A stretch of 64,000 nt of DNA from Acholoe squamosa (lineage: Eukaryota; Annelida; Polychaeta; Phyllodocida; Polynoidae). The notes beneath the pieces were generated by a model. It did not search any database. It saw nothing but the letters and a program-made list of their open reading frames with translations, and was not told the origin of the DNA. The stretch is from the NCBI GenBank assembly GCA_949317995.1, contig OX439044.1, positions 23,384,733 through 23,448,732 of the forward strand, written 5' to 3'. The position numbers and the translations under genes were made by a program. Below are positions 3 through 46,281 of the stretch, piece by piece. How positions within the stretch are numbered: the first letter of the stretch is position 1; every line of letters begins with the position of its first letter.

Positions 3-3000
3 CACGATACTCTCAAATCGGGAGGAAGTGCTCAAACGGCCGATGGCAGTACTATGCAGACATATGGAAGAACTTGTGTAAAGTTGCAATTGGATGGAAT
101 GCATGACTACGTCATGAGCATCACCGTTGCGGATATAGCGGATGAGGGGATACTCGGGTTGGATTTCGCATCCCTGTATGGGGTGGTTTTAGAACCACAG
201 TCAGGAGAGTTAAGTGTGAAATACCCGTATCCTGTAAAGGTTAGGTGTGTACTGAGACAAGTAAGCAGTATGGCTAGTGTAGCACACACTGTGCGAATTC
301 CCGCAGATGTAGCCTGTGTTGTGCTCGTAAGAAGTGATCCTGCAATGCGCAATAAGCCTGCAGTGATAGAACCGGATGTAATTGCTTTGTCAAGTATCCG
401 ATTAACGTCTGTAGACACTATAGTAGCAAATGCATCCTGGTCGGTAGTACCTGTCTCCAATACTGGAAACACTACTATCTACCTGAAAAAGGGACAAGTT
501 TTTGGAAACGTGACTCTTTCGGAAACTGTAACGGATAGTAAGTTAAACTTACAGAAGGTAACAGAAGATGATGAAATTTCGGATGACTTACTCAAGTTGT
601 ATGAAGAAACTTCATTAGAAGATCCGGAACACCGGAAAGAGTTTTATGATATGCTCTGTCAATATAAGACTGCCTTTGCCAAACCCGGTGAAAAACTAGG
701 TACGACAAATAAGGTAGTACACAAAATAGATACTGGAGATGCAGAACCCTTTAAAATACCGTATAGGCGGTTACCTTTAGCGAAAAAGAGAGTAGCTGAA
801 GAGGAAATGTTGGACCAGAATGTGATAGTCCCATCCAATAGTCCATGGAGTAGTCCTGTATGTATGGTAACAAAAAAAGATGGTACCATACGCTTTTGCA
901 TAGACTACAGGAAGTTGAATGGAATAACGAAAAAGAATTCGTATCCATTACCGAGAATAGATGAAACCATTGACTCCTTAGGAGGTAACAGTTGGTTTTG
1001 TACCCTAGACTTGCAATCAGGATATTGGCAAGTGGGAATGAATCCAGCAGATATGGAAAAGACAGCATTTTCGAGTCATATTGGATTATTCCAATATAAT
1101 GTAATGCCGTTTGGTTTGTGCAATGCACCAGCAACATTTGAAGCAATGATGGAAACCATATTAAATGACCTATTGTGGAAAAGATGTCTTGTATACCTTG
1201 ACGATGTAATAGTCTTCAGAAAAACATTCGAAGAACGTTCTAACAATCTCAAATTGGTATTAGAACGTATTATTTCCAATGGTCTCAAATTGAAACCCAA
1301 GAAATGCCACATGTTTAGAAAGTCCATAAATTATTTGGGCCGCATCATTAGTGATGAAGGAATAAAAGCTAATCCCGATAAAATCGAGTCAGTGACGAAT
1401 TGGAATAGACCTAAAACAGGAACAGAATCCTTTTTAGGATTCTGTTCCTATTATAGGGAATTTATTCCGAATTATTCTAGGGTCAGTTACCCATTACAAG
1501 TAATAGCTAACTGGACTCCAGGAAGTACCAAGGAAAAATTTCCTTGGACGCATGAACAGGAATCTGCTTTTCAAAAGCTAAAAGACCTGTTCACGAGTAC
1601 TCCCATATTGCAATATCCGAATGAAACGGATCATTTCATACTGGATACAGATGCTAGTAATGACAGCATTGGTGCAGCTCTCTCGCAAGTCCAAAATGGG
1701 AGAGAGGTACCTATTGCCTTTGCCAGCAACACACTGAGTAGAACTCAGCGGAATTACTGCACAACCAAAAGAGAATTGTTGGCAGTAGTTGTATATACAA
1801 AGAAGTTTAAACATTTTCTGTGGGGAACGAACTTTACTTTACGTACGGACCATTCCTCCTTAAGATGGTTATTAAACTTCCGAGATGCTGAAGGTATGCT
1901 AGGTCGATGGCTAGCCCACTTATCTGAGTATGGGCTTGAACATCACCAGATTCAGCATAGACCCGGAGTTAAGCATTTAAATGCTGATGCTTTGTCTCGA
2001 ATACCAATTCGGAAATGTGATAATCCGGATTGTACTGATTGTGGAGCTCATAGAGCAGTGCTAGCAGGGATTCGAAGACCATTCGAACCCCTAGTTGCCA
2101 GTATACTGGATTGGTCTATGGATCACATACGACGTTTCCAGGAAGCTGACTCGATAACTGCACAGCTACTGCAATTAGTACCAAAGGGTATACGTCCAGT
2201 TAGACCGGAGGTCTGTCTGGAAAATCGAGAAATGAGAAGGTTTCTTGCTCAATGGACAGAGCTTGAAGTCCGGAAAGGCGTGTTATACCATTGGAAGCCA
2301 TGTAATAATGGTGAGAAAATCATGCAAGTGGTGATACCACATGCAATGAGACATGATATTATGTACTTCTGTCAAGGACACCGGACCAGTGGTCATTTCG
2401 GGAGAAAACGCTCATTAGCACGACTCTCCAAGAAGTACTATTGGCCTGGCATGTCACGAGACTTGCAAAGATGGGTAACCACTTGTCTGGACTGTTGTAA
2501 AAACAAACCCGGACCCGGGATGGGCAAGCTTCCATTATCCCAAGAACTCTTCGGAGTTAGATTCGCAAGAATCAGGGTGGATATCATTAGTGGACTGAAT
2601 ACAACCGCTAATGATAATACCTGTATGATGGTAGTGTGTGATTATTATACGAAATACACCAAAGTATTTCCACTACCAGACCACAAAGCAGTCACTTGTG
2701 CCGAAGCCTTTGTAAAAGGTTGGGTACTGACTTTCGGTGTACCATTACTGCTACACAGTGACCAAGGCAGAGAATTCGAATCAAATCTCTGGCAGGGTAT
2801 GTGCGAATACTTAGCTATCTGCAAGACTAGAACCAACCCGTATAGGCCACAAAGCGACGGATTGGTAGAAAGGTTCAATAGAACTCTTATTCAGGTCCTA
2901 AAGTCACTCGTTAATGAACACATGGACGACTGGGATGAGCAATGTCATTTTGTGACACATGCTTATAACAGTATGGTACATTCAAGTACTAACTGCACTC

Positions 3001-3717
3001 CGAATCTTCTAGTATTTGGAGAGGACCTAATAATGCCTGCAGACTTGGTATTTGGAGTAGTGGGGATGGACCCGGAGCTACCTTGTCATGTAGTTTTTGT
3101 CGAATGTTTAAGAGACAGATTTTAAAAAGCATATGAGTCTGTCCGAATCGATTTAGAGAAAAGTGCCAAATGGCAGAAGGTTGGATATGATACCGATCTA
3201 AAACATCGGAAATTCCAATCCGGAGACAGAGTTCTGAGACTACACGAACCACTTAGACACATAAAATTAGCATCTTATTGGGATGGTCCTTTCACTATAA
3301 CACAAGTTATTAGTGATTGTACTGTAATTATCAAATCAGACCTTGTGGCTATATGTGGCTAGATTAAGGAAATGGTCTGGGAGGGAGACCTCCACAGAAA
3401 TGTATGGTGAAGGTTCCGGAAAGATCCTGAATCAGAATCGTATAATAGACCAGGTAAGGAACACTACAGTGAAGCGAGGACGAGGTAGGCCTAAGAAGTG
3501 TTCCGAATCAGTGCCACCCACGCCAACACCGATTAAGCGTGGGGGAGTTAAAAAGGTCTCGGCAGGTGAAGACAAAAAGAAGAGGAAAGGTGTTTCGAAG
3601 GCCAAGAAACCCCTAGAAAAGGCTCTTCAGACTGTCAGGTCTGAAAAAGAACTATCCAAGAAGGGGATATACGTTCGCCACAGCCCTCGAATTGCCCAGA
3701 GGACTGCAGTGACCTAA
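3..3717 (+). pseudogene. pol: gypsy A Pol: protease C-terminus, RT, RNase H, integrase
   Basis: The frame is open from base 3 and continues upstream of the window. The protease end shows the ILGLDFA motif; its DTG active site is outside. RT has the catalytic YLDD at 1194-1205 and the FGLCNAPATFE block near 1110-1140. RNase H begins with DTDAS at about 1645. Integrase has the HHCC zinc-binding module at about 2377-2510 and the D-D-E core: aspartates near 2580 and 2757, and glutamate in GLVERFN near 2866. A TAA at 3123-3125 interrupts the frame; past it the frame continues to a stop at 3358-3360 and contains the WDGPF signature of the integrase C-terminal GPY/F module. A frameshift near 3340-3350 moves reading into a basic tail to 3717 with an AT-hook-like RGRGRPKK. 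Disrupted at two places. Confidence 0.92.
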
Positions 3718-39156: not shown

Positions 39157-40527
39157 ATGGGTAAAAATAGAAAACAGGTTAAAGATACTGGACCGTTACA
39201 AGACCAAGGCGACGTTGATATTCAAACCCAACGGGCAGCTGATTCTACACTACAAAACTCAGATCAACCAAAAGGTAAGGGGAAAATGGATTCCACTTTG
39301 TCTAATAATTCTAAAAATGGTGTACAAAATGCAGATAATGAAAACTTAGAAAAATTAGATAGGGATGTGGTCAAGGAAGATCTAATTCTACAGAAATTAG
39401 ACAATATAAAGAACTCCCAAGTTAGTCACGATGATATGAAGAAACTCATGGATAAGTTGCGAGATGATCTTACCGAGCAAATAGCAGATTTAATCCAAGA
39501 CAACGACAAGTTAAGAGAGGAGAATAATTCTCTGAAAGGGAAAATTGTGTCACACAACAAGAAAATGTCTGACTTAGAAAAAAGAATTTCTCAGCTAGAA
39601 GAAGAAAAAAGAAAGAAGAACTTGGTAATTGAAGGCTTGCCTGAAAAAGATAATGTTAGTCTAAAATCAGAGATTGATAATCTCTTCAAGGATATTGGTG
39701 TAAGTTTTACATCAAATGACATTGACTCCTGTTTCAGATTGGGTCTGAAAAAAGAAAATCAAAAGAAACCTAGACCAGTAATGGTTAAGCTAGTTGCAAG
39801 TAGTCAAAAATACGAACTGTACAAAAAAGTTTCCAATCTCAGTGGAAACAAAAAGTGGGATAAAGTGTCCTTAAATGATGATCTGACACAAGAAGAACAA
39901 GAAAAGAGAAGGAATATGATTGCATTGGCAGGATACTGTAAAAGCAAAGGAAGAAATGCTAAAGTATCTGGAAAAGTATTCATCTTCGAAGGTGAAAAAT
40001 ATACTTATGACAAACTACACAAATTGCCCAAAGAATTCAGGCTTGAAAACATCAAAACAGTTGTATTTAATGATAATACAATGTTTGAATCTAAATTCAG
40101 CTTCCTATCGCCTGAATATGATTTGGAAATTGAACACAAAAATGAAAAATACCCAAGTGCAGAGGCACTATTCTACAGAATTCAGGCAGAATTTTGTGAC
40201 GACGATTTGACAGCAGAAGAAATTTCAAGGTGCGGTACAACATCAGAAGCTAAATTTCTGTCCAAACAGATCAAAAGAAGTTCTAAGTGGAGCCAAGAAA
40301 ATAAAATCAAAATAATGAGAATGGTAATGGACATTCAAATCAATCAAAATGAGGATTTAAAGGCAAAATTAGTCAATTTGCCTGGCAAGATTTACTTCTG
40401 CAGTAAGGATCATTTTTGGGGATGTGGGATGTCAATTTCCCAAAAGAAATACATCAAAGAATCAACAATAAAAGGACAAAATCAGCTAGGAATAATATTG
40501 GAATCCATCAGAGATTCTATTGTTTGA
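39157..40527 (+). CDS. LINE ORF1p: coiled coil, RNA-binding domain, C-terminal NADAR-like domain
   Basis: The ORF is intact at 456 codons. Residues 1-60 are polar. Residues about 95-160 form a Lys/Glu-rich coiled coil. The L1-type ORF1 RNA-binding fold follows from KKNLVIEGLPE (about 162) through CFRLGLKKE and PRPVMVKL to the GYCKSKGRNAKVSG region. Residues about 310-455 match the NADAR/YbiA fold: FSFLSPEYD; PSAEALFYRIQAEF with the conserved Glu near 335; TSEAKFLSKQI; a Trp helix; QNEDLKAKL; DHFWGCGMS near 420; and GQNQLGIILESIRDSI at the end. NADAR enzymes cleave N-glycosidic bonds, for example in ADP-ribosylated guanosine. ORF1p normally coats LINE RNA; the NADAR activity here is inferred. 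It begins 'MGKNRK' after an AT-rich leader. Confidence 0.82.
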   Translation: MGKNRKQVKDTGPLQDQGDVDIQTQRAADSTLQNSDQPKGKGKMDSTLSNNSKNGVQNADNENLEKLDRDVVKEDLILQKLDNIKNSQVSHDDMKKLMDKLRDDLTEQIADLIQDNDKLREENNSLKGKIVSHNKKMSDLEKRISQLEEEKRKKNLVIEGLPEKDNVSLKSEIDNLFKDIGVSFTSNDIDSCFRLGLKKENQKKPRPVMVKLVASSQKYELYKKVSNLSGNKKWDKVSLNDDLTQEEQEKRRNMIALAGYCKSKGRNAKVSGKVFIFEGEKYTYDKLHKLPKEFRLENIKTVVFNDNTMFESKFSFLSPEYDLEIEHKNEKYPSAEALFYRIQAEFCDDDLTAEEISRCGTTSEAKFLSKQIKRSSKWSQENKIKIMRMVMDIQINQNEDLKAKLVNLPGKIYFCSKDHFWGCGMSISQKKYIKESTIKGQNQLGIILESIRDSIV

Positions 40528-42184: not shown

Positions 42185-45025
42185 ATGCTAGAAGTATTAA
42201 AAAAAAAAGAAAAAATAGATGAATTCAAAGCAAGGTTTTCCAATACATGTGTCAATTTTATTACAATTACAGAAACTTGGTTTACTTCACTAGACAGTTC
42301 CCACTCATACAATATAAATGGATTTAAGCTGTTCAGGTCTGATAGACAATGGTCGGATGATGTTAATTATGATAGGCCAAAAAAAGGTGGTGGCTTGGGT
42401 ATTTATGTTAATAATAATTTTCACTGTTCTACATCGTTATTGATTAAGTATAATTATTCAAACAGTGCCATTGAGACGTTCTGTGTTGTACTAACTGATA
42501 AAAAAGGTAAAAACAAAATTATTTGTATGGTCTACAGACCTCCAAAGGGCAACATGGAAACTTTCTACAATGTACTAGAGACTATTGTTTGTGAATTAAC
42601 AATTAAGGCCAGGAATAATTTCTTTGTTTTGGGTGATTTTAACATAGATCTCCTTGATCCAAACCTTAAAAATTTAAGTTGTAGGCTTACAAATACAATG
42701 CTTCAATATGGACTAATAAATTGGGTCAAAGGGGTCACTAGAGAATCACAAAGGAATGGAGATAAAAACTCCTGTCTCGATTTAATATTCACTAATAATA
42801 CTCATATATTGAATACTATTAATATACCTTTTGACCTAAGTGATCACCATATTGTTGGTGGTATTATGGATGTAAATGATGAGAATCCTATATCAGCAAG
42901 CTTTAAGGGTCGTTCTATGAAAAATTTTAACAAAGATGATTTATTAAACAAATTTCTGGATAATAATTGGGATGAATTTTTTAATTGCCATGATGTCGAA
43001 TTTTTATGGTCATATTATATTAATACAATTGAATGTATTCTTGATGAAATGTGTCCTATAAGAAATTTTAATATTAAAAAACCTAAAGATTGTTGGGTTA
43101 CTGCTGATCTCCTGGATGACATAGCTGAAAAAGACCGGTTGCTAGCTAGATTTTGGAAAACTCATAATCTTTTAGATAAATTAGCTGCCAAAGAGGCAAG
43201 GATTAATATTAGCAAAAAAATTACTTCAACCAGGGAAAATTTTGTTAAGAATATTACAGAAGAATTTAAAAATGACCCTGTCAGATTCTGGAGAGAAATT
43301 TCAAAGATTTTACCTTCAAAGAAAAATGATATTTCAATGATACAATTGTTTAATGAAGAAGGAGAATCTATTTCTAGTCGAAATCTTCCTGATTACATCA
43401 ATGGTTATTTTGCTAATATTGGAAAAAGTCTAGCTAGAAATCTTAATGATGTGTGGTCTTATGATGGTGTATATAATAATGATTGTATTTTGGATAACTT
43501 GAGCACTAGTGAAGAAGAAATTGAATATTTTATTGATGATATTTGTACTACAAAATCATCAGCTATTGAGGGAATAAGTTCTAGCATATTAAAAACGGTC
43601 TTCAAAAACTCATTGAGGCATCTCAAGCACATATTTAATACCTCGTTAAGGACTAGTAAAGTTCCTCTTGAATGGAAAATAGCTAAGGTTATACCTATAC
43701 CTAAAGGAGGTGATGATAAATCTGTCTCTAATCTTAGACCTCTATCACTTCTATCTCTACCAAGTAAAATTTTAGAAAAAATTGTTCATAGGAAAATTAT
43801 TAACTTTCTTGAAGATAATAATTTATTATCATTAAATCAATTTGGCTATAGGAAAAATAAATCCACTATAGACTCGGTAGGTAAATTAACAGATGAAATT
43901 TTAATTAACAAAAATTATGGGCAAAATTCATTGGTTACATTTTTTGATCTCAAAAAGGCATTTGACACAGTTAATCATCAAATTTTGATAGAAACATTGC
44001 AGTATCTAGGTATCAAAGGTGATATACTAAACTGGATCAAAGTTAATTTAAGTGACAGATATCAATACACCTCTATTAATGGTATAAATTCAGATAAAGA
44101 GGCAATAGAATGTGGAGTGCCTCAAGGCTCTATATTAGGACCAATACTTTTTTTGATATACATTAATGATGTACAATTTGTTTGCAAAAATTCAAATATT
44201 TACTTATTTGCTGATGATACAGCAATTACTACAAGTTGTAAAAATGAAGGATTGGCATTATATAACATGCAAAAAGATGTAGATGCTTTTGTAAGTTGGT
44301 GTGACAAAAACAAACTCACTGTTAATATAGAAAAAACTAAATTTATGGGTTTTGGTCATAATAAATGCCTCCCAAATATAAATATAAATATCAGAAATAT
44401 TCCAATAAAGAGAGTACATAGTTATAAATACTTGGGAGTATTATTAGATCCAACTTTGAATTACAATATTTTTCTAAAAAATCAAATGAAAACTATTGCT
44501 TATCGTACATACCAACTTGCAAAAATAGCTAGGTTTTTAAGGACGGAGAATTTAATCAGAATCTACAAGGTCTATATCTTGCCTATCTTTGATTATGGTG
44601 ATATTTTATATGATAAATCAAATGTCGTTAATTTAGACAAACTGCAAAGAATGCAGAATAGAGCTATTAAAATTTGTATGAAAGTCAACTATCTTACAGC
44701 TACAAATTTTATACATCATGAATCTAAAATAAGTTTTTTAAAAGATAGGAGAAATTCTTATTTATGCATTGAAGGATTTAAAAGAGCAGAAAATAATTCT
44801 AATCTAAAAAATATTAATAAAAAATTAAGATTTAATAAAGGTAAGATACTCTCTAATCATATACCTAAATGTGAAATGTATAAAAGAAGTGTTCAATACA
44901 ATGCTTCAGTCATTTGGAACAGCCTGCCATACAAAAAATGTTGTATTGATAGTATTTCAAAGTTTAGGTCTCTTTTAAGAAGAGAGCTAAAAGAATTTCT
45001 ACCTTCAATAGAAGACATAACATAA
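42185..45025 (+). CDS. LINE ORF2p: apurinic-type endonuclease and reverse transcriptase
   Basis: The open frame is 946 codons. The endonuclease shows TETWF, VYRPPKGN, GDFNIDLLD and SDHHIV, the acid and His residues of APE-type nucleases that nick the target. RT has VIPIPKGGDDKSVSNLRPLS, FFDLKKAFDTVNH near residue 585, GVPQGSILGP near 643 and the catalytic FADD near 674; a CR1/L2-like C-terminal region ends at 946. The true start lies upstream: bases about 42141-42198 encode FLIFNARSI, the endonuclease first strand with its Asn, in the -1 frame. The two are separated by a run of ten A (42199-42208). One base difference in that run would restore the frame, so this could be a real frameshift or a consensus error. 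Confidence 0.9.
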   Translation: MLEVLKKKEKIDEFKARFSNTCVNFITITETWFTSLDSSHSYNINGFKLFRSDRQWSDDVNYDRPKKGGGLGIYVNNNFHCSTSLLIKYNYSNSAIETFCVVLTDKKGKNKIICMVYRPPKGNMETFYNVLETIVCELTIKARNNFFVLGDFNIDLLDPNLKNLSCRLTNTMLQYGLINWVKGVTRESQRNGDKNSCLDLIFTNNTHILNTINIPFDLSDHHIVGGIMDVNDENPISASFKGRSMKNFNKDDLLNKFLDNNWDEFFNCHDVEFLWSYYINTIECILDEMCPIRNFNIKKPKDCWVTADLLDDIAEKDRLLARFWKTHNLLDKLAAKEARINISKKITSTRENFVKNITEEFKNDPVRFWREISKILPSKKNDISMIQLFNEEGESISSRNLPDYINGYFANIGKSLARNLNDVWSYDGVYNNDCILDNLSTSEEEIEYFIDDICTTKSSAIEGISSSILKTVFKNSLRHLKHIFNTSLRTSKVPLEWKIAKVIPIPKGGDDKSVSNLRPLSLLSLPSKILEKIVHRKIINFLEDNNLLSLNQFGYRKNKSTIDSVGKLTDEILINKNYGQNSLVTFFDLKKAFDTVNHQILIETLQYLGIKGDILNWIKVNLSDRYQYTSINGINSDKEAIECGVPQGSILGPILFLIYINDVQFVCKNSNIYLFADDTAITTSCKNEGLALYNMQKDVDAFVSWCDKNKLTVNIEKTKFMGFGHNKCLPNININIRNIPIKRVHSYKYLGVLLDPTLNYNIFLKNQMKTIAYRTYQLAKIARFLRTENLIRIYKVYILPIFDYGDILYDKSNVVNLDKLQRMQNRAIKICMKVNYLTATNFIHHESKISFLKDRRNSYLCIEGFKRAENNSNLKNINKKLRFNKGKILSNHIPKCEMYKRSVQYNASVIWNSLPYKKCCIDSISKFRSLLRRELKEFLPSIEDIT

Positions 45026-45356
45026 TTACTATTTCTTAGATACACTTATATTCTAAGTGTCTATTTGGTCATTTATGGGGTTATAATATTGCCAATATTT
45101 CTAAAACCATTTACAACAATTATTGTAACGCTATTCTTTTGACTATGTCATACTTATGTAAATGTATTTCTAATCTCAAACATTTGTCATTGCTTGCAAT
45201 AATCATATCTATTACCTATCCTTCCTTGTATTGTCCTGTATGTCCTTTTATTCAATTTTGTATTTTAGGTATTTATATAACTACTTGTGGAATACATGGT
45301 GGCCAACTAAAACTAATTTATTAAGCGGCAGCCATTTTGTCTCAGTATTATTAAAT
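45026..45356 (+). other. LINE 3' untranslated region, first part
   Basis: AT-rich noncoding sequence up to the TRIM insertion; it resumes at 46064 and ends with the TTTGAA tail. Confidence 0.6.
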
Positions 45357-45576
45357 TGTAGGGGCAGTAATTCCCTGTACTCGGTGGCAGACCCCCAGGG
45401 GCGGGTCTCCGGGTAATCACTGCCCCCTAGTGTGTATCATATCGATCCAGGTGTGGATGGAAGGTGGAAATGTCAGGCCAGGGGAAGTAGCTCAGAGGAA
45501 GAGCAGCCGCTTCGAAGTTGGAGGGCCCCGGGTTCGAGTCCCGGTTTCTCCAAGAACATTTTCACCGACCTCTACA
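45357..45576 (+). repeat. left LTR of the TRIM
   Basis: 220 bp, TGTAG...CTACA termini; contains the tRNA-like sequence at 45481-45552. No TATA box or AATAAA was seen, so transcription from the internal Pol III boxes is possible. Confidence 0.9.
45481..45552 (+). other. 72-nt tRNA-like sequence in left LTR
   Basis: It folds on the tRNA plan: acceptor GGGGAAG with TTTCTCC (G-U pairs allowed), D arm GCTC/GAGC, T arm CCGGG/CCCGG with loop TTCGAGT, discriminator A. The anticodon stem GCCGC/TTGGA pairs at only three of five positions, and the loop would give CGA. The body resembles tRNA-Ala more than tRNA-Ser. A- and B-box promoter words are present. I do not call it a functional tRNA. Confidence 0.7.
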
Positions 45577-45577
45577 G

Positions 45578-45591
45578 TGGTGGAGAAACCG
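45578..45591 (+). promoter_or_regulatory. primer-binding site of the TRIM
   Basis: TGGTGGAGAAACCG is the complement of CGGTTTCTCCA plus CCA. CGGTTTCTCCA is precisely the 3' end of the tRNA-like sequence inside the element's own LTR. Confidence 0.8.
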
Positions 45592-45831
45592 AGCATCCTA
45601 ATACAATCAGATTGAAGATATGTGTGCCTGCTCATGTCTTAACACAATCATGGATTGAGGACTCGGGAACTGGGCCGATATGATACAGATGACGCTTCGA
45701 CCAATCCGGTAATTGTACTGGTACATCCACTGGGAAGTCAGGAGTGCCCTAACACTGCTTGATAAAGCCTCAATTTCCAGGTAACTGGTTTGAGGGGGAA
45801 TGCCTGGTGCTGGTGGATGGTGGTTGAAGCT

Positions 45832-45843
45832 GATGGGGAGGAG
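45832..45843 (+). promoter_or_regulatory. polypurine tract of the TRIM
   Basis: GATGGGGAGGAG directly abuts the right LTR. Confidence 0.8.
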
Positions 45844-46063
45844 TGTAGGGGCAGTAATTCCCTGTACTCGGTGGCAGACCCCCAGGGGCGGGTCTCCGGG
45901 TAATCACTGCCCCCTAGTGTGTATCATATCGATCCAGGTGTGGATGGAAGGTGGAAATGTCAGGCCAGGGGAAGTAGCTCAGAGGAAGAGCAGCCGCTTC
46001 GAAGTTGGAGGGCCCCGGGTTCGAGTCCCGGTTTCTCCAAGAACATTTTCACCGACCTCTACA
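45844..46063 (+). repeat. right LTR of the TRIM
   Basis: 220 bp, no difference seen from the left LTR. Confidence 0.9.
45968..46039 (+). other. 72-nt tRNA-like sequence in right LTR
   Basis: Same sequence and fold as 45481-45552. Confidence 0.7.
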
Positions 46064-46281
46064 AAATCATAGAATATACTATTATAACTCTTTTTTTTAT
46101 ATAACTTGTAATTATTTTCTAACTATTATGTGTATATAATATATTATAAATCATTGTAAATATTACTATAATGGTTAATATTACCTCATTATGAAAATTT
46201 GTTGACAATGATCTATATTGTGCTAATTGTATTATGACTTGAGACAATAAATTACTTTGAATTTGAATTTGAATTTGAATT

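What the first reader, a model, noticed from the sequence alone, without database searches (positions are those of the whole stretch)
45357..46063. TRIM whose LTRs contain a tRNA-like sequence matching its own primer-binding site
The element has two LTRs that look identical, a primer-binding site, a purine tract and a 4-bp AAAT duplication, but no ORF. Each LTR carries a 72-nt tRNA-like sequence. Its last 11 bases plus CCA would be exactly complementary to the 14-base primer-binding site one base inside the left LTR. The element may therefore encode, or derive from, its own primer, and may be transcribed by Pol III from the internal A and B boxes. Cassandra TRIMs with 5S rRNA sequence in their LTRs are a known parallel; I know of no described tRNA-like counterpart with a matching primer site, but I could not search.
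Basis: partly seen in the sequence, partly recalled or inferred. Interest (0 to 1): 0.9.

Follow-up and report, generated by a model that had tools for sequence, protein, structure and literature searches.

The report
Mini-retrotransposon carrying its own tRNA primer

Summary
Window 45357-46063 is a 707-bp TRIM: identical 220-bp LTRs, AAAT duplication, PPT, no ORF, and in each LTR a 72-nt tRNA-like gene whose last 11 bases plus CCA complement the 14-nt PBS. The kind is known: tRNA-bearing TRIMs are Helenus (Kojima 2024). But Kojima reports no complementarity between LTR tRNA-like sequence and PBS; here it exists, and genome-wide evidence supports real priming. (1) The tRNA 3' end plus CCA, which the LTR lacks, occurs at 25 exact sites; 17 of 25 were read, and all 17 are junctions with the reverse complement of an LTR end. 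(2) 12 sites carry a PBS rewritten to the LTR tRNA copy over 18 nt, the usual stop at A58; at least four continue as ordinary elements. No site is rewritten to host tRNA-Ala (0 found). (3) All 25 tRNA-like sequences that fit the conserved 16-nt PBS are LTRs of this superfamily. (4) TTTT occurs only behind the tRNA in 44 of 45 parsed copies, as Pol III would need. Against: template switching could also make the junctions, the usual match stops at 14 nt, host tRNA-Ala matches 13-14 of 18 bases (LTR tRNA 15), other host tRNAs were not surveyed, and there are no RNA data.

The parts
45353..45356 (.). left 4-bp target site duplication AAAT
45357..45576 (+). 5' LTR, 220 bp, TGTAG...CTACA
45481..45552 (+). 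tRNA-like gene in 5' LTR (LTR nt 125-196)
45488..45498 (+). A box, TAGCTCAGAGG (motif recalled)
   Evidence: sequence
45531..45541 (+). B box, GGTTCGAGTCC (motif recalled)
   Evidence: sequence
45559..45562 (+). TTTT, Pol III terminator-like; the only TTTT of the element apart from its copy in the 3' LTR
45577..45843 (+). internal region, 267 bp, no ORF
45578..45593 (+). PBS; first 14 nt complementary to own tRNA-like 3' end plus CCA; 16 nt the same in three families
45835..45843 (+). polypurine tract GGGGAGGAG
   Evidence: sequence
45844..46063 (+). 3' LTR, identical to 5' LTR
45968..46039 (+). tRNA-like gene in 3' LTR
46064..46067 (.). right target site duplication AAAT
45433..45450 (+). LTR arm of an 18-nt inverted repeat with the internal region
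45670..45687 (+). internal arm of that inverted repeat

Best explanation
A Helenus-type TRIM (non-autonomous LTR retrotransposon) that carries its own primer. The LTR tRNA-like sequence is a Pol III gene with A and B boxes and a TTTT stop. Its transcript is cut by RNase Z at the tRNA 3' end and receives CCA, as cellular tRNAs do. The CCA end anneals to the PBS of an element RNA, in cis or from a sister copy, and starts minus-strand DNA. Plus-strand DNA then copies the primer: usually it pairs with the PBS, sometimes rewriting it over 18 nt, and sometimes it pairs with the identical tRNA stretch of an LTR, giving the inverted forms seen. Enzymes come from an unidentified autonomous LTR element making 4-bp duplications. 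Shown: anatomy, match, junctions, rewritten PBSs, no PBS rewritten to tRNA-Ala, no better host match found in the searches made. Inferred: Pol III use, RNase Z, CCA addition, priming itself, helper in trans.
For: 14-nt match. Inverted junctions LTR end-N-TGG-reverse complement of tRNA-like: 15 of 15 (one has TAG for TGG), 4 more; genome-wide 25 exact tRNA-CCA sites, 0 in the reversed control, 17 of 25 read, all 17 inverted junctions. PBS rewritten at exactly positions 15, 17 and 18 in L102, a 709-bp element with identical LTRs and CTAG duplication (4e-7 in a simple chance model); the same in L144, L145, L149 among 12 sites found, 0 in the control. PBS rewritten to host tRNA-Ala: 0 sites and 0 of 137 LTR-end-TGG places in fetched loci. 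Sites with a B box and the full complement of the 16-nt PBS: 25 of 25 are LTRs of this superfamily (judged by eye). Host tRNA-Ala, 11 loci, matches 9 nt in a row. TTTT only in the LTR tail in 44 of 45 parsed copies. tRNA-like 61 of 72 identical across three families, upstream part 79 of 124.
Against: The usual PBS fits its own tRNA-like for only 14 nt, and position 15 (A) stays in most copies read although an 18-nt primer copy would overwrite it. Over 18 bases host tRNA-Ala matches 13 or 14, the LTR tRNA 15: the difference is small in total and lies in the core. Inverted junctions could come from template switching, because the PBS itself supplies TGG. Only 2 of 10 inverted loci checked have a perfect 4-bp duplication. 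In L144 and L149 the unit's own tRNA-like end is mutated, so cis priming does not explain them. Some older copies have a poorer match (runs of 8, 12 and 4 in L112, L117, L129). The second family's tRNA-like does not fold as a cloverleaf by minimum energy. Host tRNAs were not enumerated: RF00005 did not complete, and of 248 sites only 100 were listed and only a part read. No RNA data.
Confidence: 0.6

Rival explanations
1. A host tRNA is the true primer, as reported for described Helenus; the LTR tRNA-like is only a Pol III promoter of related tRNA origin and its 3' end resembles the primer by shared ancestry.
For: Kojima assigns host tRNAs to Helenus PBSs and found none complementary to the LTR tRNA. 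The 16-nt PBS core with A at position 15 is shared by families whose next internal bases differ, as if fixed by a primer with U62. Host tRNA-Ala matches 13-14 of 18 PBS bases against 15 for the LTR tRNA.
Against: All 25 sites with a B box and the full 16-nt complement are LTRs of this superfamily. PBSs have been rewritten to the LTR tRNA sequence, none to tRNA-Ala.
Confidence: 0.18
2. The tRNA-like never primes. The PBS is homologous to the LTR, and template switching at this homology during reverse transcription makes inverted junctions and converts PBSs.
For: A switch anywhere in the 14 shared bases gives the same junction, TGG included, and G at position 15. Other rearrangements show that switching is frequent, e.g. 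L073, L097 and an LTR joined to a LINE. Most inverted loci checked lack a perfect duplication.
Against: PBSs rewritten over 18 nt that return to ordinary internal sequence (L102, L144, L145, L149) would need two exact switches, but follow simply from copying a tRNA primer to A58. It leaves the 14-nt match unexplained.
Confidence: 0.16
3. A SINE or tRNA pseudogene sits in an LTR by chance and the PBS match is coincidence.
For: tRNA-derived sequences are common in genomes (general knowledge).
Against: Chance about 2e-7; the match is kept in three families with partly different internal regions, and 132 of 136 tRNA ends read keep it.
Confidence: 0.02

Closest known systems
Helenus (Kojima 2024, PMC10886601; text read in parts 1-5 of 6, supplement not seen)
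   Different: Kojima states that no complementarity between LTR tRNA-like and PBS was found and that it does not contribute to initiation; here the match, rewritten PBSs and CCA junctions point to priming.
Cassandra (5S rRNA TRIM of plants; as described in PMC10886601, and search listings)
   Same: Pol III small-RNA gene inside the LTR of a TRIM.
   Different: 5S rRNA, not tRNA; no primer role described in what I read.
Self-priming LTR elements such as Tf1 (one passage of PMC6934838; mechanism recalled)
   Same: Primer comes from the element itself.
   Different: Tf1 uses the 5' end of its own RNA (recalled); here a tRNA-like 3' end with CCA fits an ordinary-looking PBS.
biv-TRIM of bivalves (PMC6934838, passages read)
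   Same: Animal TRIM.
   Different: Typical PBS could not be identified there; no tRNA-like LTR in the passages read.

Membership tests
Helenus | short non-autonomous element with two LTRs, no coding capacity | tested here: met
   707 bp, identical LTRs, no ORF of 130 aa or more
Helenus | tRNA-derived sequence inside each LTR with A and B boxes | tested here: met
   TAGCTCAGAGG and GGTTCGAGTCC
Helenus | PBS and PPT next to the LTRs | tested here: met
Helenus | 4-bp target duplication (animal Helenus) | tested here: met
   AAAT here; 29 of 45 parsed elements have a perfect 4-bp duplication
Helenus | PBS not complementary to the LTR tRNA-like (a reported observation, not the definition) | tested here: not met
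   14-nt match; this marks a variant
Helenus | sequence similarity to a published Helenus consensus | not testable with these tools
   Repbase and the paper's supplement are not held
Helenus | transcription by Pol III | not testable with these tools
   no RNA data; boxes and TTTT only
Cassandra | 5S rRNA sequence in the LTR | tested here: not met
   at gathering threshold Rfam gives only tRNA in the whole window
Tf1-type self-priming | PBS complementary to the 5' end of the element's own RNA | not tested
   the RNA 5' end is unknown; the complement found is the tRNA-like 3' end

The most novel reading that the evidence does not exclude
The primer is not only a free small tRNA: the genomic RNA's own 3' end is matured as a tRNA. 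RNase Z cuts the 3' LTR transcript after the tRNA-like part, CCA is added, and this end primes on a PBS in cis or trans, so template and primer are one molecule. L071 and L069 have this order (LTR-internal-LTR cut at the tRNA end-CCA-reverse LTR), and an LTR/internal inverted repeat kept in three families could bring the two ends together.
Probability: 0.22. Interest if true: 0.93.

Novelty: new variant of a known kind. Interest (0 to 1): 0.8.

Why it matters
LTR elements and retroviruses are generally held to borrow a cellular tRNA as primer. An element that supplies its own matching tRNA would remove that dependence, give some TRIMs a reason to keep a tRNA-like LTR beyond its promoter, and leave a DNA record of primer maturation (CCA, A58 stop). 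It would also qualify the one published statement on this point for Helenus, and mean that some predicted tRNA genes in such genomes are primers.

Tried and rejected
Autonomous partner: L090/L101 (C16) looked like an LTR element with a coding interior, but the frames match endonuclease and reverse transcriptase domains of LINE type. The Gypsy-type pol frame at window 54-3125 was checked for LTRs against 5.2 kb of upstream sequence and none was found. The reading that CCA in the inverted junctions by itself proves priming was dropped, because the PBS supplies the same TGG. Host-looking tRNA ends (T-loop GATCCCCGG or alike) were read at 5 sites and 5 of 5 are LTRs of a fourth subfamily. 'tRNA-Ser' from ARAGORN rests on the anticodon; which host tRNA the LTR copy came from is unresolved.

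Corrections after re-checking: 9 of 15 (not 10) inverted arms copy the unit's own LTR over all 60 letters compared. The 18-base totals for host tRNA-Ala (13, 14) against the LTR tRNA (15) and the missing duplications were left out before and are now given; odds of the main reading went from 0.62 to 0.60. A control for PBSs rewritten to tRNA-Ala was added (none).

Rows dropped or biased: one search merged copies too strongly and is not used. parses only copies with the exact LTR start and the first 12 PBS bases, so it cannot show that the PBS is always present, and it is biased to young copies; one of its 45 rows (L073) is an inverted unit. The 'run' column is wrong by an offset and is not used; the printed letters are. 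The 11 CCA rows among the 100 listed were counted by eye.

Full report
OBSERVATION. The finding's coordinates are exact. The two 220-bp LTRs (45357-45576, 45844-46063) are identical and flanked by AAAT. ARAGORN and Rfam call a tRNA in each. The PBS starts one base inside the LTR, and 14 nt fit the tRNA-like 3' end plus CCA; positions 15, 17 and 18 do not fit, 16 does. TTTT begins after six further bases behind the tRNA-like part.

THE FAMILY. The genome (unnamed, 1.48 Gb, 63 contigs) holds many copies: 2527 first-look candidates for the LTR query, of which 40 were scored; 21 of the 46 matches are 100% identical over 221 nt, the window's own included. For the interior there were 859 candidates, 40 scored. 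A second family (LTR 252 bp, 83% identical to the first LTR over 185 nt) lies next to one copy and is also abundant. A third (LTR 249 bp, interior as short as 155 bp) was found, and a fourth subfamily was seen at five sites. Across three families 61 of 72 tRNA-like positions are identical, against 79 of 124 upstream and 20 of 24 in the tail. Of 45 complete elements parsed from the fetched loci, 29 have a perfect 4-bp duplication and 41 have identical LTRs; that set is biased to young copies and required the first 12 PBS bases. In it the own tRNA-like fits the PBS over 14 nt in 42, 16 in one, 20 in one; one row is an inverted unit. Older copies can be poorer: of 20 T62 loci, five have a PBS beside the LTR, with runs of 16, 16, 12, 8 and 4. 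The interior behind the PBS differs between family 1 and families 2 and 3 in the 60 bases compared, yet 16 PBS bases are the same.

POL III ANATOMY. A and B boxes are present. Of 136 tRNA-like copies read, 118 have a recognisable LTR end, and in 118 of 118 TTTT follows the tRNA-like part. In 44 of 45 complete elements there is no other TTTT. About 1 to 2.2 would be expected per unit by base composition, so this is suggestive, not proof.

HOST tRNA TEST. Eleven tRNA-Ala loci of the host end CGGCATCTCCA and match the PBS for 9 nt in a row, then fail at positions 10 and 11; over 18 bases they match 13 or 14, the LTR tRNA 15. A pattern for a B box followed by the exact complement of the 16-nt PBS core found 25 places and none in the reversed control; all 25 were read and, by eye, all are LTRs, some degenerate, of this superfamily. 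In L122 and L126 the own tRNA-like fits the adjacent PBS over 16 nt. A looser pattern gave 248 places (control 3), of which 100 were listed and a part read; those read were LTRs or inverted junctions. So the best partner of the PBS that I could find in this genome is the tRNA-like sequence of the superfamily itself, partly in trans. Host tRNAs other than Ala were not listed.

INVERTED JUNCTIONS. In some searches some LTR pairs stood tail to tail, the second cut at the tRNA 3' end. Fifteen such junctions were read first: 15 of 15 read LTR end, one base, TGG (TAG in one), then the reverse complement of the tRNA-like part. In 9 of the 15 the arm copies the unit's own LTR over all 60 letters compared; in three for 39, 26 and 14 letters; in three the first 12 letters were not found in the own LTR by exact search. 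Four more were read, and two damaged ones (L148, L151). The string tRNA 3' end plus CCA occurs exactly 25 times (control 0); I read 17 of 25 and all 17 are inverted junctions; 8 were not read. Of 10 inverted loci checked for a duplication, two have a perfect one: L099, a 480-bp unit of LTR plus reverse LTR (CATT), and L069, a larger compound (GTTG); in several others the unit does not end where it was cut for the test. In L071 and L069 a complete LTR-interior precedes the cut LTR. The simplest course: plus-strand DNA copies LTR and primer, then pairs with the tRNA stretch of an LTR instead of the PBS. Because the PBS contains TGG and 11 bases of this sequence, template switching without a tRNA-like primer would give the same junction. 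So these show that the match has consequences in reverse transcription and are consistent with priming, but do not prove it.

REWRITTEN PBS. In standard reverse transcription (established for retroviruses; recalled) plus-strand DNA copies 18 nt of the primer tRNA up to methylated A58, and this copy can replace the PBS. L102 is an ordinary-looking 709-bp element with CTAG duplication and identical LTRs; its interior differs from the window's at seven sites, three of which are PBS positions 15, 17 and 18, each changed to the LTR tRNA copy (4e-7 in a simple chance model). A pattern for such PBSs found 12 places, control 0. All 12 were read: L102, L144, L145 and L149 return to ordinary interior at once (L144 and L149 look like one lineage, and their own tRNA-like end is mutated, so their primer would have come from another copy or before the mutation); L143 and L150 return with a small length change; L146, L148 and L151 are inverted forms; L147, L152 and L153 run into sequence not identified. 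L103, L104 and L107 carry only the position-15 change. As a control, a PBS rewritten to the host tRNA-Ala copy was sought behind an LTR end: no exact site in the genome, and 0 of 137 LTR-end-TGG places in the fetched loci, which overlap. This is the strongest sign that an RNA with the LTR tRNA's 3' end and CCA acted as primer.

WHAT REMAINS OPEN. Why position 15 stays A in most copies read: either a variant LTR tRNA with U62 is the common primer, or short primer copies succeed more often, or a longer match is harmful because it favours the inverted dead ends. The autonomous helper was not found. Nothing was measured on RNA.

LITERATURE. Kojima 2024 (PMC10886601; parts 1-5 of 6 of the text read) defines Helenus, lists fungi, plants and six animal phyla, and says no complementarity between LTR tRNA-like and PBS was found. 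Searches (listings only, apart from that paper and passages of PMC6934838) brought up no paper whose title or shown abstract describes a retrotransposon that encodes its own tRNA primer; that library lacks most subscription journals and holds no preprints.

VERDICT. A new variant of a known kind: Helenus-type TRIMs whose LTR tRNA probably serves, at least at times, as their own primer.

Noticed in passing
window 45433-45450 and 45670-45687; same in families 2 and 3: An 18-nt inverted repeat between LTR and interior is kept across families; in five arm pairs that I chose from the observed ones, 3 of 18 pairs have compensatory changes and sliding the arms destroys the pairing. Possibly a long-range RNA stem, or an old inverted LTR piece.
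   Followed up: partly
L101 (G000:C16:9782950-9790950): An LTR plus a primer-like copy of about 20 nt is followed directly by a LINE with endonuclease and reverse transcriptase domains.
   Followed up: partly
G000:C15:5088323-5140868: 31 tRNA-Ala hits on one strand within 53 kb, many at 859-904 bp spacing: a tandem array.
   Followed up: no
window 54-3125: Open frame with RT, RNase H and integrase domains of Gypsy type; no LTR pair found around it.
   Followed up: partly
window 42185-45025: 946-aa open frame with endonuclease and reverse transcriptase, LINE-like, just upstream of the TRIM.
   Followed up: no
L092, L098: Inverted junctions whose tRNA arm departs from the unit's own LTR after 26 and 14 bases, as if primer or template came from another copy.
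   Followed up: partly
L020, L035, L105, L108, L136: Tandem or nested LTR-interior units, with LTR-like pieces inside the interior of families 2 and 3.
   Followed up: no
window 39157-40527: 456-aa frame with a NADAR domain.
   Followed up: no
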